Origin: Paenarthrobacter sp. A20
GTDB lineage: Bacteria > Actinomycetota > Actinomycetes > Actinomycetales > Micrococcaceae
Length of the DNA: 64,000 bases
Direction: 5' to 3'
Assembly (NCBI RefSeq): GCF_024168825.1
Contig: NZ_JALJWH010000001.1
Coordinates: 3,286,001 to 3,350,000 of the forward strand
Shown: positions 28,583-64,000 of the stretch, in pieces
How the letters are laid out: every line of letters starts with the position of its first letter
How positions within the stretch are numbered: the first letter of the stretch is position 1
Made by a program: the position numbers and the translations under genes
The notes under the pieces: model-generated
Databases searched by the model: none
Told to the model about the DNA's origin: nothing
What the model saw: the letters and a program-made list of their open reading frames with translations, nothing else

Positions 28583-28617
28583 ACTTCAAGACTTCCCCGA
28601 TCGGGCTGCTGTCAGTA

Positions 28618-28631
28618 GGGCCGAACGACTC
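28618..28631 (-). promoter_or_regulatory. DosR-type box for the GyrI-like gene
   Basis: Core GGGCC-GAAC-GACTC. The -10 is AAGTCT at 28594-28589 on the minus strand and the predicted start point 28582 is the A of the ATG. The centre lies at -42.5. Confidence 0.65.
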
Positions 28632-28682
28632 TAAAACCGGGACAAGCTGGCAGGTGCGACGCAAACGTTCGGTTCGTGGCAA

Positions 28683-29051
28683 CTATGCCGTCTCAAAGGC
28701 CTCCTTGATCCACTTCGCAACCTCGGCGTCGACCAAGGCGGGGTTGTGGAGTTCCACGTGATGCATCCACACGGAAGGAGCAGGATGAGCTATTTCTTTG
28801 AACCTTGGGGAGTCGAGCTTATAGGGCAACGCCAACGACAACACGGCCGGTACCCCCGAATGGACGTACTTGTGCGGTCGCCACAAGTAGGCAAACCCAC
28901 GATGCCGCCGTAGGGCGACCTGGCTCTTGGAGACGTGGACCTGAAAATCACCGAGTCCACCGGCGATGGCAAAGACGGCCTCACAGATCGCGAGACCTTG
29001 AGGGGATCCGTTGAAGAAGGCAACAGCATCCGCGGGCAGGACCGTGGTCAT
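28683..29051 (-). CDS. DUF5655-family protein
   Basis: A 122-residue cytoplasmic protein that fits the actinobacterial DUF5655 family: SKSQVALRRHRGFAYLWRP, then a basic beta region, and HHVELHNPALVDAEVAKW near the end. The function is unknown, and the basic motifs suggest nucleic-acid or phosphate contact. The ATG at 29051 overlaps the stop of the ABC permease gene (ATGA), so it is the last gene of the exporter operon. An earlier in-frame start would lie inside the permease gene. Confidence 0.7.
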   Translation of the reverse strand: MTTVLPADAVAFFNGSPQGLAICEAVFAIAGGLGDFQVHVSKSQVALRRHRGFAYLWRPHKYVHSGVPAVLSLALPYKLDSPRFKEIAHPAPSVWMHHVELHNPALVDAEVAKWIKEAFETA

Positions 29052-30214
29052 AGCGCCCTTCGGAGGCTGCGCCGGAGGAACCATGCACCACAAAAGAGGA
29101 GAACCGCGGCCATCCCTGCCAGAACGCCCAGGCCAGGCAGGATGTCGGAGAAGGAGGCGTCCCGCCGCTGGATGGCGGCCAGGGCGTCATATGCCCACCG
29201 GTGAGGGGTGAGCCACGATATTGATTGGAGTGGTTCGGCGAAGAACTCCGGAGGCACCATGCAGCCGCCCAGACCAGCCAGTACGAGACCTGCGCCTATG
29301 CCGATCCCTGTTGCGGCGCCGTCGTGATCCAAGAGCGAGCCGATGATCATGGCCGCTGCGGCCGCTACCGCGCTGAAGGCCAGAAGTACCAGTGCGGTGA
29401 GCCAGAGGTTGCCCCAATCGACGCCGAAGAGCAGAGCCGTACCAACCAGGATGTATGCACCTTGAACCGAGGCGATCCCAAACCTTCCTGCTGCCTGGCC
29501 GATGATCGTCTGACCGCTGGTCACAGGTGCTGCCATGGTGCGCGGGATGACGCCGAACCGGCGGGCCTGGATCAGCGTGGCGGCACCGGTGAGGGAACTG
29601 AGAAAGATGAACAGCAGCAGTTGCTGTACCGCCCCAAGATCGAAGACTCCGAGTCCGCGGAACTCCTGGGAGGTGTTGTCGGTGTCCACAATGTCTACCC
29701 GGGGTGCCTGAACAGCTTCTTTCGCCTGGGCCAAGGCGGATGCCGCGGCCTCTGCCGGCAGGCCTGCCTGTTCCAAGGCGGCGCGCTGGCTGTGCCGCAC
29801 GCTGATGGCCATCAGGGAGCCCTTGACCTCCTGCAATGCCGCTTGGGCCGAAGCCTGCGATGCCGTCAGAATTTCCAGATCCGCTACGCGTCCGTCATTG
29901 AACGCGGCTGCCGCTTCGGGGCTGATGATGACCCCGACGTCGGCCCTTCCGCGCCCCAGTTGTTCGCGCACCACTTGCGCAGTACCGGATTCCACCTGCA
30001 TGCCGTCGGCTTCCAACTGTTCTGATATCGACGATTCCAGAACCGTGCCGGAACCACCGCCCAATGCAACCCGGGTTTCGCTGTTGCTGGAGCCGAACTG
30101 GGTGCCCAACAACAGAATCAACAGGAGCGGGAAGATGAAGACGAAGAAGATGTTGGATCGGTCCCGCAGGAAGCGCCGCACTTCCACGCCGGCGATGGCG
30201 AAGATCACTTTCAC
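29048..30214 (-). CDS. ABC-2 type exporter permease, second copy
   Basis: A 388-residue permease with one N-terminal helix, a large extracytoplasmic segment (about residues 45-190) and a C-terminal block of five helices, the long ABC-2 layout seen in YhgE/YhaP-type exporters. The GTG at 30214 overlaps the stop of the preceding permease gene (GTGA); the sequence before it belongs to that gene. It is probably a heterodimer partner of its neighbour. The substrate is unknown. Confidence 0.82.
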   Translation of the reverse strand: MKVIFAIAGVEVRRFLRDRSNIFFVFIFPLLLILLLGTQFGSSNSETRVALGGGSGTVLESSISEQLEADGMQVESGTAQVVREQLGRGRADVGVIISPEAAAAFNDGRVADLEILTASQASAQAALQEVKGSLMAISVRHSQRAALEQAGLPAEAAASALAQAKEAVQAPRVDIVDTDNTSQEFRGLGVFDLGAVQQLLLFIFLSSLTGAATLIQARRFGVIPRTMAAPVTSGQTIIGQAAGRFGIASVQGAYILVGTALLFGVDWGNLWLTALVLLAFSAVAAAAAMIIGSLLDHDGAATGIGIGAGLVLAGLGGCMVPPEFFAEPLQSISWLTPHRWAYDALAAIQRRDASFSDILPGLGVLAGMAAVLLFCGAWFLRRSLRRAL

Positions 30215-31383: not shown

Positions 31384-31385
31384 GG

Positions 31386-32342: not shown

Positions 32343-32366
32343 CTGATTCTTCAAGGGCGCACCGGA

Positions 32367-32837
32367 CTATTCCAGGCCGGCCCGTGTTGCGTCGTTGAGT
32401 GGAGTCCGAAGCGACATCGGCGCTGAAAGGTCGAATCGTCTCCCGGTTACTGAATCCGGAACGATCCTGAAGAGGTGGTCCTGGCCCACTCCCTGCCACG
32501 GGAAGAGGGCACGCCTGATTTCGTCAAGACGGGGGCCCTCCGATCCTGCTTCTTCAACGCCGCCTTTCGCCACAACGCTCCAGGCGATACCGAACTCGGC
32601 GCTCACGGAGTCCGCTTCGATTGCTACCACGGCGTCATCCTCCATGGCCCACTGTTTGGTTCCCGGCCCGGTCCTGAAAACCACAGTGTTGTTATCCACG
32701 GCGAAGTTCACGGGAAAGATATCAGGGTGGCCGTTGACGATCACAGAAAGTCGTCCAACGTTGGCCTCGCCGAGGAGCCTCCAGCAATCTTCCGTTTCAA
32801 GTACTTCTGCCTCAGGCACTATGTTTTTGTCGCTCAT
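32367..32837 (-). CDS. Pyridoxamine 5'-phosphate oxidase-family protein (copy 1)
   Basis: A 156-residue split-barrel flavin-binding-fold protein. It shares the pattern of the other copies in this window: ECW/DCW-like start (ETEDCWRLL), VGRLSVIVNGHPDIFPVNF, VVFRTGPGTK, the AWSVV strand and GRRFDLSAP near the end. The family includes F420- or FMN-dependent reductases and haem-binding proteins; no reaction can be assigned. Its start overlaps the end of the upstream membrane-protein gene. A DosR-type box is centred exactly 42.5 bp before the ATG with a TAGGAT -10, which predicts a leaderless mRNA. Confidence 0.82.
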   Translation of the reverse strand: MSDKNIVPEAEVLETEDCWRLLGEANVGRLSVIVNGHPDIFPVNFAVDNNTVVFRTGPGTKQWAMEDDAVVAIEADSVSAEFGIAWSVVAKGGVEEAGSEGPRLDEIRRALFPWQGVGQDHLFRIVPDSVTGRRFDLSAPMSLRTPLNDATRAGLE

Positions 32838-33324
32838 GCGGAGATCCTACGGCCGCTTTTCGGTCCCCAACAGGGCCCAAAGGCCCAGCCTGCAACCCAG
32901 TGTCTGTGGCCGGGTGTGGCGAGGCTACTCCAAGCAAAAGCAGGAGCAAACCTACTTCCGCCAAACCCGCTCCGAAGTAGGCCGCCTGCAGGGCGCTGAA
33001 CGGGATCAGGGCCATTTGGACGAAGATCCACACGAGGATGGAATATCCCGCCGTGGCGGCCGCCATGGATGCCAATCCACGTCGACGGAAGAGCAGGACG
33101 AAGGCCACCGTGTGTGAGCCCCCGACGATGACGGCCAGCAGAAGCCCCGGGACCAGGTAGCTGCTGAAGGGTGACCCGTCCAGGTATTCGACCGGTAGCT
33201 GGATTTCCGGCGGCAAAACGCTCTTGTCCACTCCCGGCCACGATCCGATGGCCATGACCAAGCCGCCGGCAATCGATGTCAACGCGACCAATGCCTGCAC
33301 GGTCAGAAGCATCCCTCGAGTCAT
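32812..33324 (-). CDS. Four-helix membrane protein of unknown function
   Basis: A 170-residue protein with four predicted membrane helices (LLTVQALVALTSIAGGLVMA, then about 55-80, 85-110 and 113-133) and a polar tail that is rich in Gly, Pro and charged residues. I do not recognise a named function; it resembles small actinobacterial integral membrane proteins of the DUF4383-like kind only in layout. It has an AGGAGG ribosome site. The last 26 bases overlap the next gene start, and the C-terminal ~25 codons double as that gene's promoter. Confidence 0.7.
   Translation of the reverse strand: MTRGMLLTVQALVALTSIAGGLVMAIGSWPGVDKSVLPPEIQLPVEYLDGSPFSSYLVPGLLLAVIVGGSHTVAFVLLFRRRGLASMAAATAGYSILVWIFVQMALIPFSALQAAYFGAGLAEVGLLLLLLGVASPHPATDTGLQAGPLGPVGDRKAAVGSPHERQKHSA
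32873..32886 (-). promoter_or_regulatory. DosR-type box for PNPOx copy 1
   Basis: Core GGGCC-CAAA-GGCCC. The -10 is TAGGAT (32849-32844) and the predicted start point 32837 equals the A of the ATG. The box lies inside the 3' end of the upstream membrane-protein gene. The 19 bases AACAGGGCCCAAAGGCCCA recur in inverse orientation at 51612-51630. Confidence 0.7.
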
Positions 33325-33431
33325 GGTTCCTCCTAAATGATGGTGTGTCGAAAACGTTGTCCGCAGCTACCGCAACGGAAGCAACTACACCGACACGCCG
33401 ACGTCGGGGGTTACTGCTGGCTCGTCGTCAT

Positions 33432-34877: not shown

Positions 34878-34879
34878 GG

Positions 34880-35155: not shown

Positions 35156-35156
35156 C

Positions 35157-35603: not shown

Positions 35604-36070
35604 CACGCACTCCTCTGGATTCCATATGCTGTGGCAATGGACAAGAGTTCTTCACCCCACGCAGCTGCGCGGGACGTCTGTCCGTCAAGCAAGGGACCCT
35701 CAGTTCCCTTGACGTAGAAGGCCATTGGCTCGGCCACTATGCTGGCTCCGGCCTCTTTGAGGGTCTTTGTGATCTTCTTGGCGGCATCACCATGGATGAA
35801 CAGCTTGACCCTCGTATCAAAGCCGGCAGCAACCACCCCGGAAAGCCCTCGGCTGCCAAGACGGGCCAGAGCCTCCATGGTTTTCTGTGTGGGGCGCCAA
35901 CCGTTGATCGGGCTGCCGACCACCAACAGGTCACCTGCCGAGATGTCGTCGGATCGCACCTGACCGGCCGGCAGGACTTTCGCGTTCAGTGGGCTGAGGC
36001 CTGCGGCAATGGCCTCAGCGATCGACTTGGTGTTGCCAAAGCCGGAATCATAGACAACGAGTGCTTTCAT
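35603..36070 (-). CDS. Flavodoxin
   Basis: A 155-residue flavodoxin-like protein. The FMN phosphate loop is visible at the start (VVYDSGFGNTKSIA), followed by the LLVVGSPINGWRPT loop. Flavodoxins carry electrons at low potential and can replace ferredoxin under iron limitation or stress. The ATG at 36070 overlaps the stop of the DUF3040 gene (ATGA). It belongs to a DosR-box-controlled operon of stress proteins, so a role in reductive metabolism in low oxygen is a reasonable inference. Confidence 0.82.
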   Translation of the reverse strand: MKALVVYDSGFGNTKSIAEAIAAGLSPLNAKVLPAGQVRSDDISAGDLLVVGSPINGWRPTQKTMEALARLGSRGLSGVVAAGFDTRVKLFIHGDAAKKITKTLKEAGASIVAEPMAFYVKGTEGPLLDGQTSRAAAWGEELLSIATAYGIQRSA

Positions 36071-36396
36071 GACTGTTCCTTGTTCTTCTCGTGGGCGTTT
36101 TCCCGGGTGCGCGGCCTCCACCGCATAGGGCGGTCACCCATGAAAAGGGTTGCCCAGTACGTCCCCCCACCCATCACGAGGAAACCCACCACACCGAGTG
36201 CCAAACTGCCTAGTGGGAAACTCACCAGCAGCAGTCCGAGCCCGCCGAGCGCAGCAAGGCAGCCTCGCTTTATGCCCTTCCAGCGGCGTCGATCGAGGTC
36301 TTCCAGGCTCATGAGTGCTGCCAGCCTGGGGTCCTCCTCCAGAAGACCCTGCGAAATGTTGTCCAGTTCGAGCCGTTCGAACTCCGAAAGTGCCAT
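36067..36396 (-). CDS. DUF3040 membrane protein
   Basis: A 109-residue actinobacterial DUF3040 protein: the N-terminal LSEFERLELDNISQGLLEEDP is diagnostic, followed by two membrane helices at about 46-80 and a basic tail. The function is unknown. It is the first gene of a long minus-strand operon. AGGAGG stands seven bases before the ATG. A DosR-type box at 36450-36463 with a CATGCT -10 predicts transcription from 36414. Confidence 0.82.
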   Translation of the reverse strand: MALSEFERLELDNISQGLLEEDPRLAALMSLEDLDRRRWKGIKRGCLAALGGLGLLLVSFPLGSLALGVVGFLVMGGGTYWATLFMGDRPMRWRPRTRENAHEKNKEQS

Positions 36397-36449
36397 GGTG
36401 TGCCTCCTGCCTTCCCTCCCAGCATGTGTGGTGCGGCAATGCGGAAACA

Positions 36450-36463
36450 GGGCCGAAAGTCAC
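36450..36463 (-). promoter_or_regulatory. DosR-type box for the DUF3040-flavodoxin-USP operon
   Basis: Core GGGCC-GAAA-GTCAC. The -10 is CATGCT (36426-36421), the predicted start point is 36414, and the centre lies at -42.5. Confidence 0.7.
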
Positions 36464-36473
36464 ACCAAGGTTC

Positions 36474-36487
36474 GGGACCAAAGACTC
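36474..36487 (+). promoter_or_regulatory. DosR-type box for the PEP synthase operon
   Basis: Core GGGAC-CAAA-GACTC within TTCGGGACCAAAGACTC, the closest match in this window to the mycobacterial DosR box. The -10 is CAGAAT (36511-36516) and the predicted start point 36523 equals the A of the ATG. The centre lies at -42.5, 24 bp from the neighbouring divergent box. Confidence 0.72.
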
Positions 36488-36522
36488 TGCCCGGGCTGGC
36501 CCGGGCCGCCCAGAATCAAGGC

Positions 36523-38934
36523 ATGGAGCCAGCCATCGAAGAGTCATATGTCACATGGTTTGAGGACATCGGAATGGGGGATGTTCCCGAAGTGGGCGGT
36601 AAGAATGCGTCACTGGGTGAACTCACCACATCGTTGCGTTCAGCAGGGGTGAAGGTCCCCGACGGCTTCGCTACGACGTCCGGCGCGTACAGGAAGTTCT
36701 TGGCTGCCAACGGACTCGAATCGGTCATCAGTCATTCCATGAGTGAGCTTAGGTCAGGCAGGTTGTCTCTTCGCGAGACGGGGCATGCCATCCGCGACGC
36801 AATGTTGGCGGGCGAGTTTCCGTCCGGACTTATTGAGGGCATCAGGCATAACTATCGGCGCCTGGGCGAACGGGCCGGGCAGGAGCGATTGGCGGTAGCT
36901 GTCCGCAGCAGCGCAACGGCAGAGGACCTGCCGGATGCCAGTTTTGCCGGGCAACAGGAAACATTCCTGAATATCTCAGGTGAGAGCGCACTCCTGGATG
37001 CCTGCCGACGCTGTTTTGTCTCGCTTTTCACTGATCGCGCCATTAGCTACCGGGAGATCAAAGGGTTTGGGCACTTGGACGTGGCACTGTCCATAGGTGT
37101 CCAGCGCATGGTTAGATCCGACATCGGAGCGTCAGGGGTGATGTTCTCCATCGATACTGAGTCGGGCTTTCCACAGAGCGTCGTCATCAGCGCGGCCTGG
37201 GGATTGGGCGAGACCGTTGTCCAGGGCACCATCAACCCGGACAAGTACCAAGTGTTCAAACCGCTACTTGATAACCCCGCTCTGGTGCCTGTGATCGAGA
37301 GATCCGTGGGATCCAAAGAGCGCAAGATGGTGTACCGCTTGGGAGGGACCGCCTCCACGGCGATGGTGGAAACCACCGACAAAGAACGACGTGCCACTGT
37401 TCTCCCGGACATCGACATCATCAAGCTCGCGCGGTGGGCCGTGTCCGTGGAAGACCACTACGGACGTCCCATGGACATGGAATGGGCCAAAGACGGCGTC
37501 ACAGGCGAGCTGTTCATGGTCCAGGCGCGACCGGAAACAGTTCAGGCCCAAAAAAGCGGGACGCTCTTCCGCATGTATCACCTGGGACAGGATGGCCGTC
37601 TCCTTGCGTCCGGCGCAGCGGTCGGGAATTCCATAGCCGTAGGCCCCGTCTGCATCATCCGCGATGCCAAGGACATTGAGGCGTTTGTGGATGGGGCCAT
37701 TTTGGTAACCCGGATGACGGACCCGGACTGGGTTCCCGTGATGAAGCGGGCAGCTGGGATCGTGACTGACCACGGGGGACCCACCAGTCACGCGGCGATT
37801 GTGAGCCGTGAGCTAGGCGTTCCCGCCGTGGTGGGTACTGGCGACGCAACTGACGCGCTGGCAGGTAGGGAAGTTGTCACGCTCTCGTGCGCCGAAGGAG
37901 AAGAGGGACACGTCTATGACGGGATGCTGGACTTCGAAGTAGAAGAGGTGGACACCGGGAGCCTTTCCGAAACGCGCACGGACATCATGGTCAACATCGC
38001 CAGCCCGGCCGCAGCTTTCACCTGGTGGCGTCTTCCCGCTGCAGGAGTCGGCCTGGCGAGGATGGAATTCATCATCAACAACTTGATCCGTGTTCATCCG
38101 ATGGCCCTTATCCATCCCGAGTTGGTGATGGATGACGCCGAATCAGCTGTTATTGAACAACTGACCAGGGGCTACACCAGCCCCGAGGAGTATTTCGTCA
38201 GTGTCCTTGCCACAGGCATAGCCAAGATTGCTGCTCCTTTCCATCCGAAACCAGTGGTTGTCCGGCTCAGCGATTTCAAGAGCAACGAGTATGGACATCT
38301 CATCGGCGGCAGCTTCTTCGAACACCCTGAAGAAAACCCCATGCTGGGATTCCGGGGGGCTTCCCGCTACTACAACAAGCACTACCGTGAAGCTTTCGCG
38401 TTGGAATGCCTGGCCGTGAAACGCGCACGTGAAGTCATCGGCTTCTCAAACGTCATAGTCATGGTTCCCTTTTGCCGCACAGTGGATGAAGCGGACAAGG
38501 TGCTCAATGCGATGTCGGAGAACGGACTTGTGCGTGGAGAGCACGGGCTGCGCGTCTACATGATGTGTGAGATCCCTTCCAACGTGGTGCTGGCGGAACA
38601 ATTCGCCCGCCGTTTTGATGGGTTCTCCATCGGTTCCAATGATTTGACCCAATTGGTGCTCGGCGTAGACCGTGATTCGGAACAATTGGCAGGGCTCTTC
38701 GATGAACGCGATGAAGCCGTGACCACCATGATCTCGGAGGTCATCGGGAAGGCGCATGCAGCAGGAATCCGGATAGGGATCTGTGGTCAAGGTCCAAGCA
38801 ACCATCCGGATTTTGCGGAGTTTCTTGTCCGTGAAGGCATTGACTCGATTTCACTGAACCCCGATACCTTCATCCGGACGGTCCCCTTGATAGCTGCTGC
38901 AGAAAAGCATCTCAAACGGCCGGACCCAGTGTAG
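36523..38934 (+). CDS. ppsA: Phosphoenolpyruvate synthase
   Basis: An 803-residue enzyme of the PEP-utilising family: an N-terminal ATP-grasp-like domain (GGKNASLGEL at about 26, VRSSATAEDLPDASFAGQQE near 127-146), the swivelling phosphohistidine domain (TDHGGPTSHAAIVSRE near 415), and a C-terminal PEP/pyruvate barrel ending in GICGQGPS. It interconverts pyruvate + ATP with PEP + AMP + phosphate. The ATG at 36523 is preferred because the predicted start point falls on it; earlier in-frame codons would lie in the promoter. The next gene follows four bases later. With phosphofructokinase in the same operon, it may run toward pyruvate and ATP in low oxygen. That direction is inference. Confidence 0.9.
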   Translation: MEPAIEESYVTWFEDIGMGDVPEVGGKNASLGELTTSLRSAGVKVPDGFATTSGAYRKFLAANGLESVISHSMSELRSGRLSLRETGHAIRDAMLAGEFPSGLIEGIRHNYRRLGERAGQERLAVAVRSSATAEDLPDASFAGQQETFLNISGESALLDACRRCFVSLFTDRAISYREIKGFGHLDVALSIGVQRMVRSDIGASGVMFSIDTESGFPQSVVISAAWGLGETVVQGTINPDKYQVFKPLLDNPALVPVIERSVGSKERKMVYRLGGTASTAMVETTDKERRATVLPDIDIIKLARWAVSVEDHYGRPMDMEWAKDGVTGELFMVQARPETVQAQKSGTLFRMYHLGQDGRLLASGAAVGNSIAVGPVCIIRDAKDIEAFVDGAILVTRMTDPDWVPVMKRAAGIVTDHGGPTSHAAIVSRELGVPAVVGTGDATDALAGREVVTLSCAEGEEGHVYDGMLDFEVEEVDTGSLSETRTDIMVNIASPAAAFTWWRLPAAGVGLARMEFIINNLIRVHPMALIHPELVMDDAESAVIEQLTRGYTSPEEYFVSVLATGIAKIAAPFHPKPVVVRLSDFKSNEYGHLIGGSFFEHPEENPMLGFRGASRYYNKHYREAFALECLAVKRAREVIGFSNVIVMVPFCRTVDEADKVLNAMSENGLVRGEHGLRVYMMCEIPSNVVLAEQFARRFDGFSIGSNDLTQLVLGVDRDSEQLAGLFDERDEAVTTMISEVIGKAHAAGIRIGICGQGPSNHPDFAEFLVREGIDSISLNPDTFIRTVPLIAAAEKHLKRPDPV

Positions 38935-38938
38935 AGCC

Positions 38939-43205: not shown

Positions 43206-43219
43206 GGGACTTCCGGCCC
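43206..43219 (+). promoter_or_regulatory. DosR-type box upstream of the DUF1508-like gene
   Basis: Core GGGAC-TTCC-GGCCC. The best -10 is CATCCT (43244-43249), giving a start point at 43256 with the box centre at -43.5. A weaker half-match, GCGTC-CAAG-GTCCT, lies at 43167-43180. Confidence 0.55.
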
Positions 43220-43309
43220 TTACGACCCAACTCTGTCAGCGGGCATCCTGATGGAAGGCATAGGGGGACCGATGATGCCGTGATCAGCAAGTGCAGAAAG
43301 GGCGGACCC

Positions 43310-43811: not shown

Positions 43812-44825
43812 TCATGGAATCCTCAACACGGCGGCTCCAGTGATTCTGTCATTCGCGAGGTCGTCCAAGGCTTGATCGGCAGCGGCAAAGGGATATGCCG
43901 TGGTGGTGGGAATCAATGGCATGTCCGCTGCGAGGGAAAGCAATTCCGTTCCGTCAGCCCTCGTGTTGGCGGTGACGCTGCAGACTTGCTTCTCGTAGAA
44001 GAGCTCGTCCGCATAGTTCATCGAGGGGATGTCGGAGAGGTGGATGCCGGCCACCGCCAGAGTTCCGCCCCTGTCCAACGCCCTCATCGCGATAGGTACC
44101 AGTTCACCCACCGGTGCGAAGAGAATGGCTGAGTCCAGCTTCACCGGGGGAGCGTCGAATGCACCGCCGACGTATTCTGCACCCAGGCTTCGGGCCAAAA
44201 CCTGCGCCTCCTCGGATCGTGTCATGACGAAGACCGACGCGCCTGAATGGATTGCGATTTGCGCGGTCAGGTGGGCTGAGCCTCCGAACCCGTAGATGCC
44301 CAAGCGGCCGCCGGGGGGAAGGGCAGCCCGTTTCAGGGCACGGTAGCCAATAATGCCGGAGCAAAGGAGCGGGGCCGCCTCCTCATCGCTGAAGTGGGGA
44401 GGAACGGCGTAGGCAAAGTCCTCCCTGACTGTCATCATTTCCGCGAAGCCGCCGTCACGGTCCCAGCCAGTGAAAACCGGTGTGCTGCACAGGTTCTCGG
44501 CGCCGCGCTGGCAATAGTGGCAAGCACCGCACGTGCCGCCGAGCCACGCGATGCCCACCCTGTCGCCGGTTTCAAACCTGCCAGTGCCGGGGCCTGATTC
44601 CACGACGATTCCCACAGCTTCATGACCTGGAACAATCCGGGAATGGCGCGGAGGAAGGTCACCTTCAGCCAGATGCAGGTCCGTGCGGCAGACACCACAC
44701 ACGTTGACTTTAACGAGTAATTCGCCCTCGTCAGGTGTCGGTACGACCTTGCTCCCTTGCTCCAGCGGGTGAGTCGAAATGCTTCCTGGCCGTCCCACCC
44801 ACCACGCCTTCATCGTGTTTGCCAT
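43812..44825 (-). CDS. Zinc-dependent alcohol dehydrogenase (AdhA-like)
   Basis: A 337-residue zinc alcohol dehydrogenase: catalytic zinc residues in CGVCRTDLH and GHEAVGIV, structural zinc cysteines CGACHYCQRGAENLC, and the nucleotide-binding GIYGFGGSAH. It is the AdhA type that typically oxidises or reduces primary alcohols and aldehydes with NAD(H). The ATG at 44825 is chosen because a DosR-type box centre lies exactly 42.5 bp before it with a CACGCT -10, although an ATG at 44813 is possible. Under fermentation it could re-oxidise NADH. Confidence 0.84.
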   Translation of the reverse strand: MANTMKAWWVGRPGSISTHPLEQGSKVVPTPDEGELLVKVNVCGVCRTDLHLAEGDLPPRHSRIVPGHEAVGIVVESGPGTGRFETGDRVGIAWLGGTCGACHYCQRGAENLCSTPVFTGWDRDGGFAEMMTVREDFAYAVPPHFSDEEAAPLLCSGIIGYRALKRAALPPGGRLGIYGFGGSAHLTAQIAIHSGASVFVMTRSEEAQVLARSLGAEYVGGAFDAPPVKLDSAILFAPVGELVPIAMRALDRGGTLAVAGIHLSDIPSMNYADELFYEKQVCSVTANTRADGTELLSLAADMPLIPTTTAYPFAAADQALDDLANDRITGAAVLRIP

Positions 44826-44860
44826 GCAATGAGCGTGATGCAGATGTGATCCGGCAGCAA

Positions 44861-44874
44861 GAGTCAAAGGTCCT
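44861..44874 (-). promoter_or_regulatory. DosR-type box for the AdhA-like gene
   Basis: Core GAGTC-AAAG-GTCCT. The -10 is CACGCT (44837-44832) and the predicted start point 44825 equals the A of the ATG. The centre lies at -42.5. Confidence 0.62.
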
Positions 44875-44955: not shown

Positions 44956-44969
44956 GTGACCTTCGGCCC
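44956..44969 (+). promoter_or_regulatory. DosR-type box for the USP-PNPOx operon
   Basis: Core GTGAC-CTTC-GGCCC. The -10 is CATTCT (44993-44998), the predicted start point is 45005 and the centre lies at -42.5. A further weak match, GGGTC-TCCG-GACAC, lies directly upstream at 44941-44954. Confidence 0.68.
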
Positions 44970-45036
44970 TGTTCGATGATGGCCAACCACGGCATTCTGA
45001 CAGGAAGGAAAGCCACAAGCGCCAGGAGGAAAAAGA

Positions 45037-46877: not shown

Positions 46878-46963
46878 GGCTTGGCCCGTTCTTCGTTGAT
46901 GGGTTCCCGGATATCGGCCGGGGCCTTGTTGTCAGTTTGTACCGGGTTCATACCGCCCGGTTA

Positions 46964-46977
46964 GGGCCGGAAGTCCT
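46964..46977 (-). promoter_or_regulatory. DosR-type box for the tandem USP copy 3
   Basis: Core GGGCC-GGAA-GTCCT. The best -10 is CAAACT (46939-46934) with a predicted start point at 46927 and the centre at -43.5. The box touches the stop codon of the upstream nuclease gene. Confidence 0.6.
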
Positions 46978-48855: not shown

Positions 48856-48963
48856 GGGGATCGATACTCCTTCATTTTGTTCGATGCCGGGGCCGCCCAC
48901 CTTCTGCGAGCGGTTTCGGGTCTCCCGTTCTTCCAGCGTCGGTACAAAGGCACATTCCCAACA

Positions 48964-48977
48964 GGGCCAAAAGTCAC
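48964..48977 (-). promoter_or_regulatory. DosR-type box for the SPW gene
   Basis: Core GGGCC-AAAA-GTCAC. The -10 is GACGCT (48940-48935), the predicted start point is 48928 and the centre lies at -42.5. Confidence 0.68.
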
Positions 48978-48988: not shown

Positions 48989-49002
48989 GGGTCCTTGGGC
49001 CC
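48989..49002 (+). promoter_or_regulatory. DosR-type box for the response regulator gene
   Basis: Core GGGTC-CTTG-GGCCC. The best -10 is AAGAAT (49027-49032) with a predicted start point at 49039 and the centre at -43.5. It is 25 bp from the divergent box and suggests autoregulation. Confidence 0.62.
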
Positions 49003-49095
49003 TTGTGGGCAGGGCAGGCAGTCGGCAAGAATTTGGCAGAGCCGCCAACAAAAAGCTCTCGATATTGCGGCCATCGGCCGCCGGACAGGAGAATC

Positions 49096-49794
49096 ATGGA
49101 TCGCCCAGAAACAGCCGGCCAAACCACCGGCGTTTCCCCAGGAGAACCAATCCGCGTTTTCATCCTCGATGACCATGAGTTGGTTCGCAGAGGCCTCCAG
49201 GAACTTTTGGAAGGCGAAGGTTTCGTGGTTGTTGGCATGTCCGGTTCAGCGGAAGAAGCGACGCGCCGGATTCCCGCGTTGCGTCCCGACGTCGCTGTTC
49301 TGGACGCACGGTTGCCCGACGGCACCGGAATCGAGGTGTGCCGGGACGTTCGCTCCGTGGACCCTGGCCTGAATTGCCTGATCTTGACAAGCTACGACGA
49401 CGAGCAGGCCCTCCGCGCCGCTGTTCTTGCCGGGGCTGCAGGTTACATCCTGAAGGAAATCGGGGGCACGGACCTGCTTGGCGCCTTAAGGAAAGCCGCC
49501 CACGGTGAGTCGTTGTTCGACGAAGCCGTCAAGACGAGAATCGTCCAAGGCCTCACTGCACCGAAGAAGCAGGATCCCAGGACAGCTTCCCTCACGCCGC
49601 AAGAGCGCCGTGTCCTTGACTATGTTGGTCAGGGCATGACCAATCGCCAGATCGGCGAGGAAATGCTTTTGGCAGAGAAAACGGTTAAGAACTACGTCTC
49701 ATCCTTGCTGGCCAAACTCGGGTTTGAGCGCAGAACCCAGGCGGCGGTGTTCATGGCTCAAGCACCCGAAGAGGATGCCGGTTCCCTGCGCTGA
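49096..49794 (+). CDS. devR: DosR/DevR-type response regulator
   Basis: A 232-residue NarL/LuxR-type response regulator. The receiver domain has the acidic pocket in ILDDHELVRRG, phosphoacceptor D70 in VLDARLPDG and K120 in GYILKEI. The C-terminal DNA-binding domain (about 165-220) ends in LLAEKTVKNYVSSLLAKLG and ERRTQAAVF, nearly identical to M. tuberculosis DosR, including the lysines and asparagine that contact its box (K195, K198, N199 here). The first ~18 residues are an extension. AGGAG precedes the ATG. Its gene is convergent with the sensor kinase gene, four bases apart. It is the natural candidate to bind the DosR-type boxes in this window. Confidence 0.9.
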   Translation: MDRPETAGQTTGVSPGEPIRVFILDDHELVRRGLQELLEGEGFVVVGMSGSAEEATRRIPALRPDVAVLDARLPDGTGIEVCRDVRSVDPGLNCLILTSYDDEQALRAAVLAGAAGYILKEIGGTDLLGALRKAAHGESLFDEAVKTRIVQGLTAPKKQDPRTASLTPQERRVLDYVGQGMTNRQIGEEMLLAEKTVKNYVSSLLAKLGFERRTQAAVFMAQAPEEDAGSLR

Positions 49795-49798
49795 AGGA

Positions 49799-51508
49799 TC
49801 AGCTCAGCGGGACAGACCATGTCATTGCTGTCCCGTTTCCAGGCGCACTGGTGATGGAACTGGTCCCGTTCATTTCCTTTGCGCGCAGAGCAATGTTGGC
49901 CAGGCCGTTTCCCGGGGCCGGATCGACAAATCCGCATCCGTCGTCCACCACTTCCAAGGTCAGCCAACCTTCGGCCACTGAAACTGAAACACTGATGGAT
50001 TGAGCCCCTGAGTGGCGCACGGCATTGCTGAGGCCTTCAGATACGACAGCCAGAAGGTGTTTGATGATGGCTTCATCGTCCACCAAGTCAACGGCGCCAG
50101 CCAGCGTCAGATGTGGCGCGTACGGCAGGGACTTGGCACCGGCCTGGATTGACTGGAGGATGCGGCCGCTCAACGGCTCCCGCTCACGGGTACTGGCCTG
50201 CAGCGAATAGATGGTGTTGCGCAGATCGCGGATACTTGTGTCCAGCTCTTCGGTCACAGAGTCGATCCTGCTCAAGGCAGCCTCGCCGGTCGTGAAACGC
50301 CGGAGGCTTTGGAGGCTCAGCCCAGCTGCAAACAGCCGTTGTATGACCAGGTCATGGAGATCCCGTGCGATCCTGTCCCTGTCGGAGAACACCATCACTT
50401 GTTCCCGGAGCCGGTGAATCCGCTCCAGCGCCAGCGCGAGGGCCACGTGCGAACCGAAGACTGCCCCCATCTCCACATCGGTCTTTGAAAAATTGCCTGA
50501 ACCGGGATCGCGGGCAAGGACCAAGAGACCGTGATGGGCTCCTTGGGCGCTGAGGTCGATGATCAGCAGCCGGGCCGACACCCCCTCGCTGGCAAGACCG
50601 AGGAGATCCTGGGAATCATCAAGGCAAGCGGGCTTTCCGGTGCTTGCGACGCCCTGCACTTCAGTGGCTTTCATCGCCAACGACGCGCCGGCGAATTCAG
50701 CGCCACGGGCTCCAGCGGTGCCCGCCACTACATAGGGCTCATGAGGAGACGGAACAAGGATCAACGCCAGATGGGAACCCGATTCCCGGAGGGCCCTCGC
50801 CGCGATCAGGTCCAATGCCGAGTTCTCGGCCTGCCCCAGTTGGTCTGCGCCGAGCATTGTTCCCGTAACGTCCATGCAGGCTTCAAGCCAAGAGGCGCGG
50901 CGGCGGGCATCTTCATACAGCCGGGCGTTCTCGATTGCCACGCCGGCCGCCGCGGCCAACGCCACGGCAAGGTCCTCATCCTCTGGCGTAAAGTCTCCGC
51001 CGCCTTCTTTTTCGGTCAGGTAGAGGTTCCCGAATACCACATCCCGTACCCGCACCGGGACTCCGAGGAACGACTTCATGGGAGGGTGGTGCTGCGGGAA
51101 TCCGTAGGCTTTCGGATGGTGGCCGAGGTCATGGAGGCGCAGCGGCGTCGGCTCCGTGATGAGCAGTCCGAGGACACCGTGTCCAGTAGGGAGAGGGCCG
51201 ATGCGTCGGGCGAGCTCGCCGTCTATACCTACCGTAATGAAATGACTGAGAGCGTTGTCCTCCCCGATGACACCCAAGGCGCCATAGCGCGCCTGAAGCA
51301 GCCGACATGCCGAGGTCACCACGCGGTCCAGCACCGCTTCGAGGCTTAGGTCTTCTGCCACGGCCACAACCGCCTCGAGCAAGCCCCGTGTTCTTTCCTG
51401 TGCCTGGAGAAGCTCTCCGGCGCGGCCAACAAAGTCCTTCAGGAGGTCCTCAATCCGAATCCGAGGCACAACGTTGGGCTGGGGCTCGGGTGCTTCTGAG
51501 TCGTTCAC
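49799..51508 (-). CDS. devS: DosS/DevS-type GAF sensor histidine kinase
   Basis: A 569-residue soluble kinase: GAF domain 1 (about 55-200), GAF domain 2 (about 225-365), dimerisation/phosphoacceptor domain (H385 in ARDLHDLVIQRLFAAGL) and an ATPase domain (N-box around N495, VDDGCGF near 521-527). In GAF-1, H141 in FPQHHPPMKSFLGVPVRV aligns with the proximal haem histidine of DosS, so a haem sensor of oxygen, NO or CO is likely. The start is a GTG with AAAGGAACCG before it. No clear DosR-type box was found upstream, so the kinase may be made constitutively. Confidence 0.88.
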   Translation of the reverse strand: MNDSEAPEPQPNVVPRIRIEDLLKDFVGRAGELLQAQERTRGLLEAVVAVAEDLSLEAVLDRVVTSACRLLQARYGALGVIGEDNALSHFITVGIDGELARRIGPLPTGHGVLGLLITEPTPLRLHDLGHHPKAYGFPQHHPPMKSFLGVPVRVRDVVFGNLYLTEKEGGGDFTPEDEDLAVALAAAAGVAIENARLYEDARRRASWLEACMDVTGTMLGADQLGQAENSALDLIAARALRESGSHLALILVPSPHEPYVVAGTAGARGAEFAGASLAMKATEVQGVASTGKPACLDDSQDLLGLASEGVSARLLIIDLSAQGAHHGLLVLARDPGSGNFSKTDVEMGAVFGSHVALALALERIHRLREQVMVFSDRDRIARDLHDLVIQRLFAAGLSLQSLRRFTTGEAALSRIDSVTEELDTSIRDLRNTIYSLQASTREREPLSGRILQSIQAGAKSLPYAPHLTLAGAVDLVDDEAIIKHLLAVVSEGLSNAVRHSGAQSISVSVSVAEGWLTLEVVDDGCGFVDPAPGNGLANIALRAKEMNGTSSITSAPGNGTAMTWSVPLS

Positions 51509-51612: not shown

Positions 51613-51626
51613 GGGCCTTTGGGCCC
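51613..51626 (+). promoter_or_regulatory. DosR-type box for the PNPOx-ADH-ATPase operon
   Basis: Core GGGCC-TTTG-GGCCC. The -10 is TACGGT (51650-51655) and the predicted start point 51662 equals the A of the ATG. The centre lies at -42.5. The 19-bp site is the inverted copy of the one at 32870-32888. Confidence 0.72.
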
Positions 51627-51661
51627 TGTTGTCCCCGCGCAGCCGGACCTACGGTCTAACC

Positions 51662-52132
51662 ATGACGAACAAACCCACGGTTCCGGAGGCTGAGATCCTG
51701 GACAACAAGCAGTGTTGGGAACTGCTGCGCGGTGTCTCGGTGGGCCGCCTTGCAGTCTGGGCGCAGGACCATCCAGACATCTTTCCCATCAATTACAAAG
51801 CAGACCACGGCACGCTGGTCTTCCGCACCGGTGAGGGGAGTAAGCTCCACGCAGCCCTCAGCGCCACACCGGTAGCGCTGGAAGCTGACGGAGTTGACCC
51901 ACAGTCGGGAGTCGCGTGGAGCGTGGTGGTCAAGGGAAAAGCAGAGAGCATCAAGCTGACCCAGGAAGTACTGGACACTGTCGGTCTGCTGCTCTTCCCG
52001 TGGCAGGCCGGGCGGAAGGATCATTTTGTCCGGATCGTTCCCACCTCGTTGACCGGGCGCCGCTTCAACGTGACCCCACCGCTGACGTGGTGGAGTCCGC
52101 TCGACGACGCCACCCGGGCGGGTTTGGAATGA
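51662..52132 (+). CDS. Pyridoxamine 5'-phosphate oxidase-family protein (copy 3)
   Basis: A 156-residue split-barrel protein of the same subgroup as copy 1: ILDNKQCWELL, SVGRLAVWAQDHPDIFPINYK, LVFRTGEGSK, GVAWSVVVKG and GRRFNVTPP. The ATG at 51662 is the predicted start point of a DosR-type promoter and has no ribosome site, which suggests a leaderless mRNA. It overlaps copy 4 by four bases. Confidence 0.83.
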   Translation: MTNKPTVPEAEILDNKQCWELLRGVSVGRLAVWAQDHPDIFPINYKADHGTLVFRTGEGSKLHAALSATPVALEADGVDPQSGVAWSVVVKGKAESIKLTQEVLDTVGLLLFPWQAGRKDHFVRIVPTSLTGRRFNVTPPLTWWSPLDDATRAGLE

Positions 52133-53722: not shown

Positions 53723-53731
53723 CCAGCGGAC

Positions 53732-55666: not shown

Positions 55667-56027
55667 TCTCCACGTAGGTGTATTTGCGCGTCGGAATCCA
55701 CGGCTTCAGGGGCAGTTTGTCGGCCTCGTCGATCTCCGATTGCGACTCGATGACCCTGGCAGTCCCCTTAAGGACAACACTCCAGGCTTCGGCGTCGACA
55801 ATCTCCTCCACTTCGAAGGCGACCTTCTCATTGACGGTCAGCTCAGCGAGCTTTGTCCCCGGGTTCGTCCTCAGCAGCAGCCGCTGCTGGTGGGCGATGA
55901 AATTCAGGGGGTAGATGTCCGGCTCGCCCAGGACGCTCACTGCCAAGCGACCATGCTGGTTGCGTTCCAGGACCTTCCATGAGTCGGCTTCGGATAGGAC
56001 GGTTCCGGGGCGTTCGTCGGTTTCCAT
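55605..56027 (-). CDS. Pyridoxamine 5'-phosphate oxidase-family protein (copy 5)
   Basis: A 140-residue split-barrel protein: LSEADSWKVLERNQHGRLAVSVLGEPDIYPLNF, LLLRTNPGTKL, AWSVVLKG and HGRHFELGD. It lies closer to general F420/FMN-binding family members than copies 3 and 4. The ATG at 56027 has AGGAG ten bases upstream. A DosR-type box lies 106 bp upstream with a perfect TAGGCT -10. The 3' end overlaps the ATPase gene in the opposite direction. Confidence 0.8.
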   Translation of the reverse strand: METDERPGTVLSEADSWKVLERNQHGRLAVSVLGEPDIYPLNFIAHQQRLLLRTNPGTKLAELTVNEKVAFEVEEIVDAEAWSVVLKGTARVIESQSEIDEADKLPLKPWIPTRKYTYVEITPTRVHGRHFELGDEPERY

Positions 56028-56126
56028 GGGTCTTTGTCTCCTGGGTGGGGGTGGCTGCTGGCGAATCGCCACGTCACCGTTGGCTTCGATGCTCCCGAGC
56101 CTATGGCTGGCTCCCCGCCCCCAACA

Positions 56127-56140
56127 GAGTCCAAAGTCCC
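56127..56140 (-). promoter_or_regulatory. DosR-type box for PNPOx copy 5
   Basis: Core GAGTC-CAAA-GTCCC. The -10 is TAGGCT (56103-56098), the predicted start point is 56091 and the centre lies at -42.5. Confidence 0.68.
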
Positions 56141-56158
56141 GAGGGCGAAACAGCCATC

Positions 56159-56172
56159 GTGACCTTTGCCTC
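56159..56172 (+). promoter_or_regulatory. DosR-type box for the phosphate acetyltransferase gene
   Basis: Core GTGAC-CTTT-GCCTC. The -10 is GAACCT (56196-56201), the predicted start point is 56208 and the centre lies at -42.5. It is 32 bp from the divergent box. Confidence 0.6.
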
Positions 56173-56237
56173 TGGTGTGGACGGCCTGCGGGGTGGAACC
56201 TGTGAAGCATCGGATGACCGGCCCGGAGGGATACACC

Positions 56238-58307: not shown

Positions 58308-58309
58308 TG

Positions 58310-58768
58310 CTAGCCCTTTTTATCCTGACTGACCACCAGGACGGGGCACTGCGCATGGGCCGAGCAGGCCCGGCTGACGGATCCAATGGGCTGATTGAGG
58401 AAACCGCCGGAGCCCCGCCTCCCCACCACGAGTAGTTGTGCCCCGTGGCTTTCTTCGACGAGGACCTTGGCTGGTTCGCCGAACTTGACCGTCACCGTTA
58501 GATCCTTGGGGCGGTCTGCACCGAAGGCTCGTTCCACGGCCTCATCGACCAGCCGCTTGGCGGTGTCTTCCAATTCCGTGGTGAAGCGTGTCAGTTCGGG
58601 CTCGAAGCGGGAAGCCATGAAGTAGTCGGACATTCCAATACAGGTGATCACCTCCAGGGGGCCTCCCAACGCAGCTGCCATGCGACCGGCCATCTGCAAG
58701 GTGTTGGAGGAATATTCGGATCCATCGACGCCGACAACGATCCGATCAGAGCGCGATTGTGTATTCAT
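58310..58768 (-). CDS. Universal stress protein, single domain (copy 4)
   Basis: A 152-residue UspA-fold protein with IVVGVDGSEYSS at the start and GRRGSGGFLNQPIGSVSRACSAHAQCP near the end, so the ATP loop is kept. The ATG at 58768 lacks a good ribosome site and is exactly the predicted start point of a DosR-type promoter, suggesting a leaderless mRNA. It is convergent with pta. Confidence 0.87.
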   Translation of the reverse strand: MNTQSRSDRIVVGVDGSEYSSNTLQMAGRMAAALGGPLEVITCIGMSDYFMASRFEPELTRFTTELEDTAKRLVDEAVERAFGADRPKDLTVTVKFGEPAKVLVEESHGAQLLVVGRRGSGGFLNQPIGSVSRACSAHAQCPVLVVSQDKKG

Positions 58769-58803
58769 GGGACCAGCCTGCCGTCCACCTGGCCGCCCCA
58801 CTA

Positions 58804-58817
58804 GGGTCGAAGGGCAC
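58804..58817 (-). promoter_or_regulatory. DosR-type box for USP copy 4
   Basis: Core GGGTC-GAAG-GGCAC. The -10 is CAGGCT (58780-58775) and the predicted start point 58768 equals the A of the ATG. The centre lies at -42.5. CTAGGGTCGAAGGGCACGG is repeated exactly at 61496-61514. Confidence 0.72.
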
Positions 58818-58834
58818 GGATCCGGCGAGCTGCA

Positions 58835-61435: not shown

Positions 61436-61498
61436 CTTTTCTCCAATGCGGGAATGCCTGTTCGATGACAGACTCCACCGGGGAACTGCCCGCGTCTA

Positions 61499-61512
61499 GG
61501 GTCGAAGGGCAC
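61499..61512 (-). promoter_or_regulatory. DosR-type box for the CtpF-like ATPase gene
   Basis: Core GGGTC-GAAG-GGCAC. The -10 is GAGTCT (61475-61470), the predicted start point is 61463 and the centre lies at -42.5. The site is an exact 19-bp repeat of the one upstream of USP copy 4. Confidence 0.68.
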
Positions 61513-61520
61513 GGTAGGGC

Positions 61521-61534
61521 GGGACCTTCTGCCC
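61521..61534 (+). promoter_or_regulatory. DosR-type box for PNPOx copy 6
   Basis: Core GGGAC-CTTC-TGCCC. The -10 is TAGGCT (61558-61563) and the predicted start point 61570 equals the A of the ATG. The centre lies at -42.5, 22 bp from the divergent box. Confidence 0.65.
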
Positions 61535-61569
61535 TATATGGGGATAGCCGGAGGGGATAGGCTCGGCCA

Positions 61570-62076
61570 ATGGAGAACACATCGACGGATCAGGACACCA
61601 AGGAACTCAGCGTCCACGATTGCTGGAAGTACCTTCAATCGGTGTCCATCGGCAGGATCGCCCTCATCAACGGCGAGGTACCGGAGATCTTTCCGGTGAA
61701 CTTCGTCCCGAACTATGGAACTGTTCTGTTCAGGACCGGACCGGGGACCAAGCTCGACGCCCTGCGGGAAGGGGCGGTGATTGCGCTGGAAGCCGATGGG
61801 TTCAACCGTTATGGGACCGTCGCCTGGAGTGTCATCCTCAAAGGAAGCCCGGAGTTCGTGACCCAGCCTGAAGACATCCAGGAGGCAGTGGAAGCCGGCC
61901 TTTCTCCATGGCAGCCCGGGGCCAAGGACGTCCTGGTCAGGGTCACGCCAACGGAGATCAGTGGTCGCCGGTTTGTCATTGCGCCTCCGTCCAAGTGGTG
62001 GCCGCCGCTGGATCCGACCGCCTCTGACGTTCACGACGGCGAAACTCGCGTTGTCCCGCCCGGCACCTCTGGCTAG
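61570..62076 (+). CDS. Pyridoxamine 5'-phosphate oxidase-family protein (copy 6)
   Basis: A 168-residue split-barrel protein: LSVHDCWKYL, SIGRIALINGEVPEIFPVNF, VLFRTGPGTKLD, TVAWSVILKG and GRRFVIAPPSKWW. The last ~20 residues form a flexible tail. The ATG at 61570 coincides with the predicted start point of a DosR-type promoter, although a GGAGGGG some 12 bases upstream could also act as a ribosome site on a longer mRNA. The gene overlaps the convergent universal stress protein gene by four bases. Confidence 0.83.
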   Translation: MENTSTDQDTKELSVHDCWKYLQSVSIGRIALINGEVPEIFPVNFVPNYGTVLFRTGPGTKLDALREGAVIALEADGFNRYGTVAWSVILKGSPEFVTQPEDIQEAVEAGLSPWQPGAKDVLVRVTPTEISGRRFVIAPPSKWWPPLDPTASDVHDGETRVVPPGTSG

Positions 62077-62867
62077 GGTCGGGTCAGGAGGGTGGGGCAC
62101 TGCACATGCAGGAGCACATGCTGGGCAACGGAGCCCAGCAGCACGCTCAAACCTCCCCGCCCTTTGCAGCCCATGACCAGCAGCTGTGCTTCCCTTGCAG
62201 CAGCTATCAGAGCCTCTCCGGGGCTACGGGTGGTATCCAGGACTTCCTTCACGACGACGGACGGGAACTTGTGGTTGACCCGCTGGACAGCCGCGTCAAG
62301 GACATTCCCACCCTCGGCAAGCCCAACGTCGGGCCCTGTCGCATGGACAATCATCAATTCATCATCCAAACGTTGGGCTTCCGTGGCCCCTTGATCCAGG
62401 GCATCGACTGACTCAGCGGAGCCGTCAACGCCAACCACTACGCCCGAACGCTGGTGAGGTGCAAGCACCGGGACGACGGCGACGTCGCACTTGCTGGTCA
62501 CAGCAACCTGGAAACTGACCGAACCGTATCCCTGTCCTTCCGTGCCGGGTCCGCGGTCCGTGCCCAGCACCACCATCGAGTAGGCAGGTGACAAGGAAGC
62601 AATCGTTGCGGCAGGTTCGCCAGACAACCGCTGAGTCGTCACGCCCACGTTGGGAAAGGCTGCCGCCAGCCGTTGCGCTTCGCTGTTGAGCAGATCCTCA
62701 GCGCGGCTTAGGGCCAGGTGATGGTCGTTCTCGCGGGGGTAAGCCCACTCCCCGGGAACCACGTGGACCAGGGCCAGGCCAAGATCAAGGGAATCCGCGC
62801 GGGCCCCAGCCCAGTCAGCCACAGGCGAGCCAGCCCGTGAGCCGTCAAGGGCAACCAGAATCTGCAT
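62073..62867 (-). CDS. Universal stress protein, tandem domains (copy 5)
   Basis: A 264-residue protein with two UspA domains. The first (MQILVALDGSRAGS) has a degraded ATP loop (GTDRGPGTEGQGYGSVSF), while the second (VVVGVDGSAESV, ending GCKGRGGLSVLLGSVAQHVL) is complete. I chose the ATG at 62867; a GTG at 62873 in the same frame is almost as likely because the nearest GGAGGG is far upstream of both. A DosR-type box 83 bp upstream predicts a start point at 62908. Confidence 0.83.
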   Translation of the reverse strand: MQILVALDGSRAGSPVADWAGARADSLDLGLALVHVVPGEWAYPRENDHHLALSRAEDLLNSEAQRLAAAFPNVGVTTQRLSGEPAATIASLSPAYSMVVLGTDRGPGTEGQGYGSVSFQVAVTSKCDVAVVPVLAPHQRSGVVVGVDGSAESVDALDQGATEAQRLDDELMIVHATGPDVGLAEGGNVLDAAVQRVNHKFPSVVVKEVLDTTRSPGEALIAAAREAQLLVMGCKGRGGLSVLLGSVAQHVLLHVQCPTLLTRP

Positions 62868-62943
62868 CTTCACGAACCGACGTTCCCTCCGGATTACCAA
62901 CGGTGGTGGTCTCCACTATCGGCGGGACGGCCTTTCGTCGCAA

Positions 62944-62957
62944 GGGCCGGAAGGCCC
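62944..62957. promoter_or_regulatory. Shared DosR-type box for divergent USP copy 5 and acetate kinase
   Basis: Core GGGCC-GGAA-GGCCC, a near-perfect palindrome. To the left the -10 is GATAGT (62920-62915) with start point 62908; to the right it is TAGGGT (62981-62986) with start point 62993. Both start points are 42.5 bp from the same centre, so a single box can serve two promoters. Confidence 0.7.
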
Positions 62958-63037
62958 TCCCACTGAACGGCTCAGTGCATTAGGGTCCAGAGGAGAGGCC
63001 TCGACCGTAGCCTTCCCCGCGGAAGTGAGAGGAGAAC

Positions 63038-64000
63038 ATGCGTGTTCTTGTGCTGAATCCCGGGTCCTCATCGCTGAAGTACCACCTGCGTGACACGGCA
63101 GCTACCAACCCGGCTGCTGCCCTTCTTGCTTCCGGACAGGTTCACTGGCCACCGGACGAGCGTTCCAGCGCGACCCGCCTGCACACTGCCTTTGAAGAGC
63201 TGAATGACACCATGAAGCGCCTCGGAGCCGTGCATCCGGAGGCTATTGGACACCGCGTCGTCCACGGCGGCGTCTGGTTCGGAACACCGGTGCTTATCAC
63301 GGCTGACGTGACAGCGGCGATTGAAGGGCTAAGTCCTTTGGCGCCTCTCCACAACCCCGCCAGTGTCGCTTGTATTGACGCCGCCGGCCAACGTTGGCCC
63401 GATCTTCCGCAGGTAGCCGTCTTTGACACGGCGTTCCATCGCACCATTCCGGACTTCGCCGCCCGCTATGCCATTCCGGAAGACGCCTACCGTGTCCATC
63501 CAGTGAGGCGCTATGGATTTCACGGCATCTCGGTGGAGATGGCCTGCCGTGACACAGCAGAGTTTCTCGACGTGGCGCCTTTGACTGCGATAGTGGCCCA
63601 CGTTGGCAACGGCGCATCCGTCACCGCCGTCAGGAACGGGCTCAGCGTGGACACCTCCATGGGAATGACCCCCTTGGAGGGCCTGGTCATGGGGACGCGG
63701 TCGGGAGACCTGGATCCTTCCATCGTCTTGTTGATGCAGCATGGCGGTGCCACTGCCGAAGAAGTTGATGGCATCCTCAACCACCGCTCGGGCTTGTTGG
63801 CGCTGGCTGGAACTGCTGACATGCGGGACGTTGGCGCTGCTGCCCGCCAAGGAGAACCTGGGGCGATCCTCGCCCTGGACATGGCCGCCTATCGTCTCGC
63901 CAAGTACATAGCTGCCTACTCCATGGTGGTTGGCCGGCCTGACGCCCTGGTGTTCACCGGCGGCGTGGGTGAGAACTCTGCGCTGTTCAGGGCCAGGGTG
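63038..64000 (+). CDS. ackA: Acetate kinase, cut by the window end
   Basis: The first 321 residues of acetate kinase; the 3' end lies outside the window. The phosphate-binding LVLNPGSSSLKYHL starts it, followed by HRVVHGG, FDTAFHRTIP, RYGFHG and VGNGASVTA, and FTGGVGENSALFRARV is reached at the cut. It transfers phosphate from acetyl phosphate to ADP, giving ATP and acetate, and completes the Pta-AckA pathway. GAGAGGAGAAC precedes the ATG. Transcription from 62993 is predicted from the shared DosR-type box. Confidence 0.92.
   Translation, partial: MRVLVLNPGSSSLKYHLRDTAATNPAAALLASGQVHWPPDERSSATRLHTAFEELNDTMKRLGAVHPEAIGHRVVHGGVWFGTPVLITADVTAAIEGLSPLAPLHNPASVACIDAAGQRWPDLPQVAVFDTAFHRTIPDFAARYAIPEDAYRVHPVRRYGFHGISVEMACRDTAEFLDVAPLTAIVAHVGNGASVTAVRNGLSVDTSMGMTPLEGLVMGTRSGDLDPSIVLLMQHGGATAEEVDGILNHRSGLLALAGTADMRDVGAAARQGEPGAILALDMAAYRLAKYIAAYSMVVGRPDALVFTGGVGENSALFRARV

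What the first reader, a model, noticed from the sequence alone, without database searches (positions are those of the whole stretch)
28589..63038. Array of about 18 DosR-like boxes with a fixed -42.5 geometry to the -10 element
Upstream of almost every gene or operon in the 28-64 kb island there is a site GNGNC-N4-GNCNC, close to the mycobacterial DosR box TTSGGGACTWWAGTCCCSAA. For 16 of 19 start points served, the dyad centre lies exactly 42.5 bp upstream of a start point predicted from an NANNNT -10 at -12 to -7; for the other three it lies at -43.5. I allowed a one-base shift, and one site (48403) was found by looking for the spacing. A chance fit of this many is unlikely: A and T fit at one chosen offset about 1 in 16 times. 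It is the position expected of a class II activator overlapping -35.
Basis: partly seen in the sequence, partly recalled or inferred. Interest (0 to 1): 0.9.

Follow-up and report, generated by a model that had tools for sequence, protein, structure and literature searches.

The report
Low-oxygen switch sites with fixed spacing
A soil bacterium carries a block of stress and fermentation genes whose promoters share a DosR-type control site at nearly the same distance from the predicted start of transcription, a layout already known from mycobacteria; one extra base in the site appears to point it towards its gene.

Summary
A matrix built only from other species' loci finds 18 sites scoring >=16 in window 28-64 kb and none in 1-28 kb. 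In 76 relatives' loci the -10 fit peaks at exactly these two of 83 offsets. Elsewhere in the genome such boxes are sparse and their -10 fit is at background. Seven of 18 gene-serving predicted starts fall exactly on an ATG.

The island encodes a DosR/DevR homologue with an identical recognition-helix stretch and a DevS/DosT-like kinase. It is best read as a DosR/OsdR-type hypoxia or redox regulon using class II activation. That architecture is already described for mycobacteria, so this is a new member.

One refinement: the box is polar. A T at -35, on the promoter side only, marks direction (83 of 85 sites at -42.5); WW-core boxes lacking it fit only at background. The rule holds in 39 loci from 14 other families and is weaker in one more. 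No start site was measured.

The parts
28582..28631 (-). box (centre 28624.5, -42.5), -10 AAGTCT, predicted start 28582 = A of the ATG of the GyrI-like gene
32837..32886 (-). box (32879.5, -42.5), -10 TAGGAT, start 32837 = ATG of Pyridox_ox_2 gene heading an ABC-transporter gene run
36414..36463 (-). box (36456.5, -42.5), -10 CATGCT, start 36414, 18 nt before the ATG of a DUF3040 gene (36067-36396); flavodoxin, Usp and DUF4389 genes follow
36474..36523 (+). box (36480.5, -42.5), -10 CAGAAT, start 36523 = ATG of the PEP synthase / PPDK-like gene; GH65/HAD and phosphofructokinase genes follow
36505..36554 (-). doubtful box (36547.5) inside the PPDK-like gene facing left, serves no gene; probably chance
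43206..43256 (+). box (43212.5, -43.5), -10 CATCCT, before two small ORFs, the first with DUF1508
44825..44874 (-). box (44867.5, -42.5), -10 CACGCT, start 44825 = ATG of zinc alcohol dehydrogenase gene
44956..45005 (+). box (44962.5, -42.5), -10 CATTCT, start 45005, before Usp (45037) and Pyridox_ox_2 (45485) genes
46927..46977 (-). box (46970.5, -43.5), -10 CAAACT, start 46927, before tandem-Usp gene (46877)
48928..48977 (-). box (48970.5, -42.5), -10 GACGCT, start 48928, before SPW-repeat membrane gene
48989..49039 (+). box (48995.5, -43.5), -10 AAGAAT, start 49039: promoter of the response regulator itself
   Evidence: a box facing the regulator with a fitting -10 within 700 bp in 71 of 80 related loci
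49096..49794 (+). DosR/DevR homologue, LuxR/NarL-type response regulator
   Evidence: best solved match 3c3w DevR E 7.9e-64; stretch LAEKTVKNYVS identical
49799..51508 (-). DevS/DosT-like GAF histidine kinase, convergent with the regulator gene; no box in front of it
   Evidence: first GAF domain matches 2vzw (E 5e-51) and DevS 2y8h (E 2.7e-49), His column of DevS kept; no box
51613..51662 (+). box (51619.5, -42.5), -10 TACGGT, start 51662 = ATG of the first of two Pyridox_ox_2 genes; ADH and heavy-metal P-type ATPase genes follow
56091..56140 (-). box (56133.5, -42.5), -10 TAGGCT, start 56091, 64 nt before the ATG of a Pyridox_ox_2 gene (55605-56027)
56159..56208 (+). box (56165.5, -42.5), -10 GAACCT, start 56208, before phosphate acetyltransferase gene
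58768..58817 (-). box (58810.5, -42.5), -10 CAGGCT, start 58768 = ATG of Usp gene
61463..61512 (-). box (61505.5, -42.5), -10 GAGTCT, start 61463, 28 nt before the ATG of a cation P-type ATPase gene
61521..61570 (+). box (61527.5, -42.5, one core mismatch), -10 TAGGCT, start 61570 = ATG of Pyridox_ox_2 gene
62908..62957 (-). box (62950.5) leftward face, -10 GATAGT, start 62908, before tandem-Usp gene
62944..62993 (+). same box, rightward face (T on both sides), weak by the matrix (13.4), -10 TAGGGT, start 62993, 45 nt before the acetate kinase gene

Best explanation
The island is a DosR/DevR (OsdR)-type regulon. Inferred mechanism: the DevS/DosT-like haem-GAF kinase senses low oxygen, NO or redox state and phosphorylates the regulator; the phosphorylated dimer binds GNGNC-N4-GNCNC-T boxes whose centre lies 42.5 (or 43.5) bp upstream of the start, so that it covers the -35 region and recruits holoenzyme with the main sigma factor to weak NANNNT -10 elements that mostly lack the T at -12. 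Shown from sequence: the boxes, the two spacings, their concentration in the island, the T at -35 on the promoter side, the match of predicted starts to start codons, and the homology of regulator and kinase. Inferred: binding, phosphorylation, signal, activation rather than repression, sigma factor, and which protein reads the T.
For: Offset histograms peak at 31/32 only, in the window (31) and in 76 related loci (31 and 32). Island concentration. Start codons (ATG/GTG with >=60 open codons): 24 at predicted +1 to +3 among 88 off-31 sites, against 0-6 at any other single position from -15 to +60; 7 of 18 gene-serving starts in the window exactly at an ATG. Regulator: DevR 3c3w E 7.9e-64 with an identical recognition-helix stretch. 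Kinase: first GAF domain matches 2vzw E 5e-51 and DevS 2y8h E 2.7e-49. A box facing the regulator with a fitting -10 in 71 of 80 related loci, in both registers (51 boxes at 31, 21 at 32). Mycobacterial DevR/DosR promoters have the proximal site overlapping -35 (passages of PMC3029386; section of PMC5360333). Predicted OsdR targets in S. coelicolor include usp, PPDK, PNPOx and ADH genes as here (PMC5069765 Table 1).
Against: No RNA, binding or expression data. Bare box not enriched. No box scoring above the 99th percentile of random stretches in front of the kinase gene (best 3.0 against 4.0), and none in front of the beta-CASP gene (46977-48362) or 33324. A tandem second box is not the rule: at most 4.8% of 125 sites at any one upstream distance, although upstream distances average 0.64% against 0.15% downstream, whereas paired sites are described for mycobacteria. 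2 of 25 outside boxes also fit, as chance would give.
Confidence: 0.92

Rival explanations
1. The boxes are operators at which the regulator represses: a site over -35 would block polymerase.
For: The position overlaps -35, and sequence alone does not tell the sign of control.
Against: -10 elements are weak (T at -12 in 29% of 83 off-31 sites), as expected of activator-dependent promoters; DosR is described as an activator at mycobacterial promoters of the same layout (passages and section); registers are kept within 1 bp, which repression does not need (inference).
Confidence: 0.05
2. The geometry is a chance fit or an artefact of searching for it.
Confidence: 0.01
3. Within the main reading: the conserved T at -35 is a relic of a sigma -35 hexamer rather than part of the regulator's site.
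For: With the -10 at -12 to -7, the T is where the first base of a -35 hexamer with a 17-bp spacer would lie; it is on the promoter side only.
Against: The T moves with the box, not with the -10, when the spacing is 32 (T at -36 in 42 of 47 sites); the bases after it do not resemble TTGACA.
Confidence: 0.3

Closest known systems
DosR/DevR regulon of mycobacteria (DevR-DevS/DosT)
   Same: Homologous regulator with identical recognition-helix stretch, DevS/DosT-like GAF kinase, box core, proximal site overlapping -35; several usp genes among the targets
   Different: Recognisable targets packed in one island of about 35 kb; regulator and kinase genes convergent, kinase gene without a box; no general tandem second box; T at -35 nearly always present here but looser in family f10, which I take to be the mycobacterial family from genome sizes only
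OsdR-OsdK regulon of Streptomyces coelicolor (SCO0167-SCO0219 region)
   Same: Predicted targets clustered around the regulator gene: usp, pyruvate phosphate dikinase, pyridoxamine oxidase, alcohol dehydrogenase; consensus AGGGCCGATCGGCCCT (PMC5069765)
   Different: That paper calls the element palindromic; in the passages and section read it gives positions relative to gene starts, not to start sites; its nitrate reductase targets have no counterpart among the island proteins scanned here
Class II CRP-type promoters
   Same: Activator site overlapping -35 at one fixed distance; the comparison is made for a DosR promoter in PMC5360333
   Different: NarL/LuxR-family response regulator, not CRP; two registers, -42.5 and -43.5

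Membership tests
DosR/DevR-type regulon | DosR-family response regulator with the DosR recognition helix | tested here: met
   3c3w E 7.9e-64; LAEKTVKNYVS identical; the Asp that I recall as phosphoacceptor is aligned
DosR/DevR-type regulon | GAF haem sensor kinase of the DevS/DosT kind | tested here: met
   homology met: 2vzw E 5e-51 (named 'probable histidine kinase response regulator'; recalled as DosT), DevS 2y8h E 2.7e-49; the columns that I count, from a recalled construct start, as DevS His149 and Tyr171 are kept; haem binding itself not testable
DosR/DevR-type regulon | DosR box GGGAC-N4-GTCCC or close at target promoters | tested here: met
   18 matrix sites at >=16 in 28-64 kb, 0 in 1-28 kb
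DosR/DevR-type regulon | TSP-proximal box overlapping -35 | tested here: met
   predicted starts at 42.5/43.5 bp; starts not measured
DosR/DevR-type regulon | paired, cooperatively bound boxes | tested here: not met
   no preferred second box in 125 related sites; PMC3029386 describes it for some targets and the targets may have one site, so it does not define the family
DosR/DevR-type regulon | induction by hypoxia, NO or CO through phosphorylated regulator | not testable with these tools
   needs expression data
class II activator promoter | activator contact with sigma region 4 / alpha subunit at a site overlapping -35 | not testable with these tools
   geometry only

The most novel reading that the evidence does not exclude
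The DosR-type box is a polar promoter element, not a palindrome: one T, 7.5 bp past the dyad centre on the promoter side, decides which way the bound activator drives transcription. Together with the two registers (-42.5, -43.5) this forms a rule across the actinomycete class that predicts start sites and direction from sequence alone; a box with the T on both faces (62950.5) would be a two-way promoter.
Probability: 0.55. Interest if true: 0.55.

Novelty: new member of a known kind. Interest (0 to 1): 0.48.

Why it matters
It places the mycobacterial dormancy switch, with its promoter geometry, in a soil actinomycete where most of the strong boxes with a fitting -10 sit in one island of about 35 kb, a convenient model for testing class II activation by a NarL-family regulator. 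The polar T offers a simple, testable rule for calling DosR-type start sites and their direction across actinomycetes, including in genomes without RNA data.

Tried and rejected
The literal 20-mer TTSGGGACTWWAGTCCCSAA as a weighted score separated the island poorly (at score >=18, 22 positions in 28-64 kb against 9 in 1-28 kb). A general tandem second box was looked for and not found. The 48403 site was rescored on both strands and rejected. Paper searches for earlier reports in Arthrobacter or Paenarthrobacter, for the exact distance, and for polarity of the site listed none whose title or abstract start addresses these for Micrococcaceae or states a polarity; they were read as listings, in a library that lacks most subscription papers, and two key DevR promoter papers were not held. 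Papers opened: PMC5069765 (passages, one section), PMC3029386, PMC6448022 and PMC8022548 (passages), PMC5360333 (passages, one section). A published mycobacterial motif, GGGACTTNNGNCCCT (passage of PMC6448022), already ends in T, so the base is in print even if I saw no statement of its polarity.

Weak points of the tests: L005-L080 include orthologues of some window promoters, so they are not fully independent; sites were merged at 75% identity; one of these records (L073) is labelled Acidobacteria and may be a misbinned contig. The matrix and model R1 were trained on sites chosen to have a -10 at offset 31/32, so only the histograms test the spacing. Without the central-WW condition, boxes lacking the T show a slight excess at offset 32 (60 of 1412, 0.042, against 0.028, sd 0.008). 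The fitting class sites come from 14 (offset 31) and 9 (offset 32) of 39 loci. In family f10, 9 of 48 boxes without the T also fit, against 16 of 28 with it. In the start-codon test, off-32 sites also show 7 starts at position -8, where the fixed T of the -10 helps to make an ATG. The whole-genome model search scored 150 of 2083 first-look candidates; 14 of its 19 rows at E <= 10 are in the island, the top 11 all so, but 6 of the 19 matrix starts (36547.5, 43212.5, 44867.5, 46970.5, 61527.5 and the right face of 62950.5) are not among its rows. Fisher p-values ignore relatedness of sequences.
Full report
Where it is. The window is G000:C1:3286001-3350000 of a 5.38-Mb genome. The closest named regulator match listed is Paenarthrobacter aurescens TC1, 99% identical. 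Island genes include Usp, Pyridox_ox_2, PPDK/PEP synthase, GH65/HAD, phosphofructokinase, zinc ADH, P-type ATPases, phosphate acetyltransferase, acetate kinase, a beta-CASP protein, the regulator and the kinase.

Noticed in passing
49096-51508: Regulator and kinase genes are convergent, 4 bp apart, unlike the devR-devS operon (operon layout recalled); the kinase gene has no box by the matrix.
   Followed up: partly
62943-62958: One box with T on both sides and a fitting -10 on both sides: possible two-way promoter for a Usp gene and the acetate kinase gene.
   Followed up: partly
46977-48362: Beta-CASP metallo-hydrolase whose best NCBIfam model is type VII CRISPR Cas14 (370 bits, below its cut-off of 800), next aCPSF1 (272 bits, below cut-off); probably an ordinary RNase of this superfamily.
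   Followed up: no
15341-25861: 3506-aa non-ribosomal peptide synthetase, three condensation and three adenylation stretches and a thioesterase, left of the island.
   Followed up: no
L001-L080 upstream of the regulator: Divergent box pairs in front of the regulator are often 25 bp (14 pairs) or 42 bp (9 pairs) apart centre to centre; relatedness not corrected, meaning unclear.
   Followed up: no
L005-L080 promoters: The -10 of these promoters lacks T at -12 in 71% of 83 off-31 sites but has G at -10 in 52%; in M. smegmatis 63% of ANNNT promoters have that T (passage of PMC6448022).
   Followed up: partly
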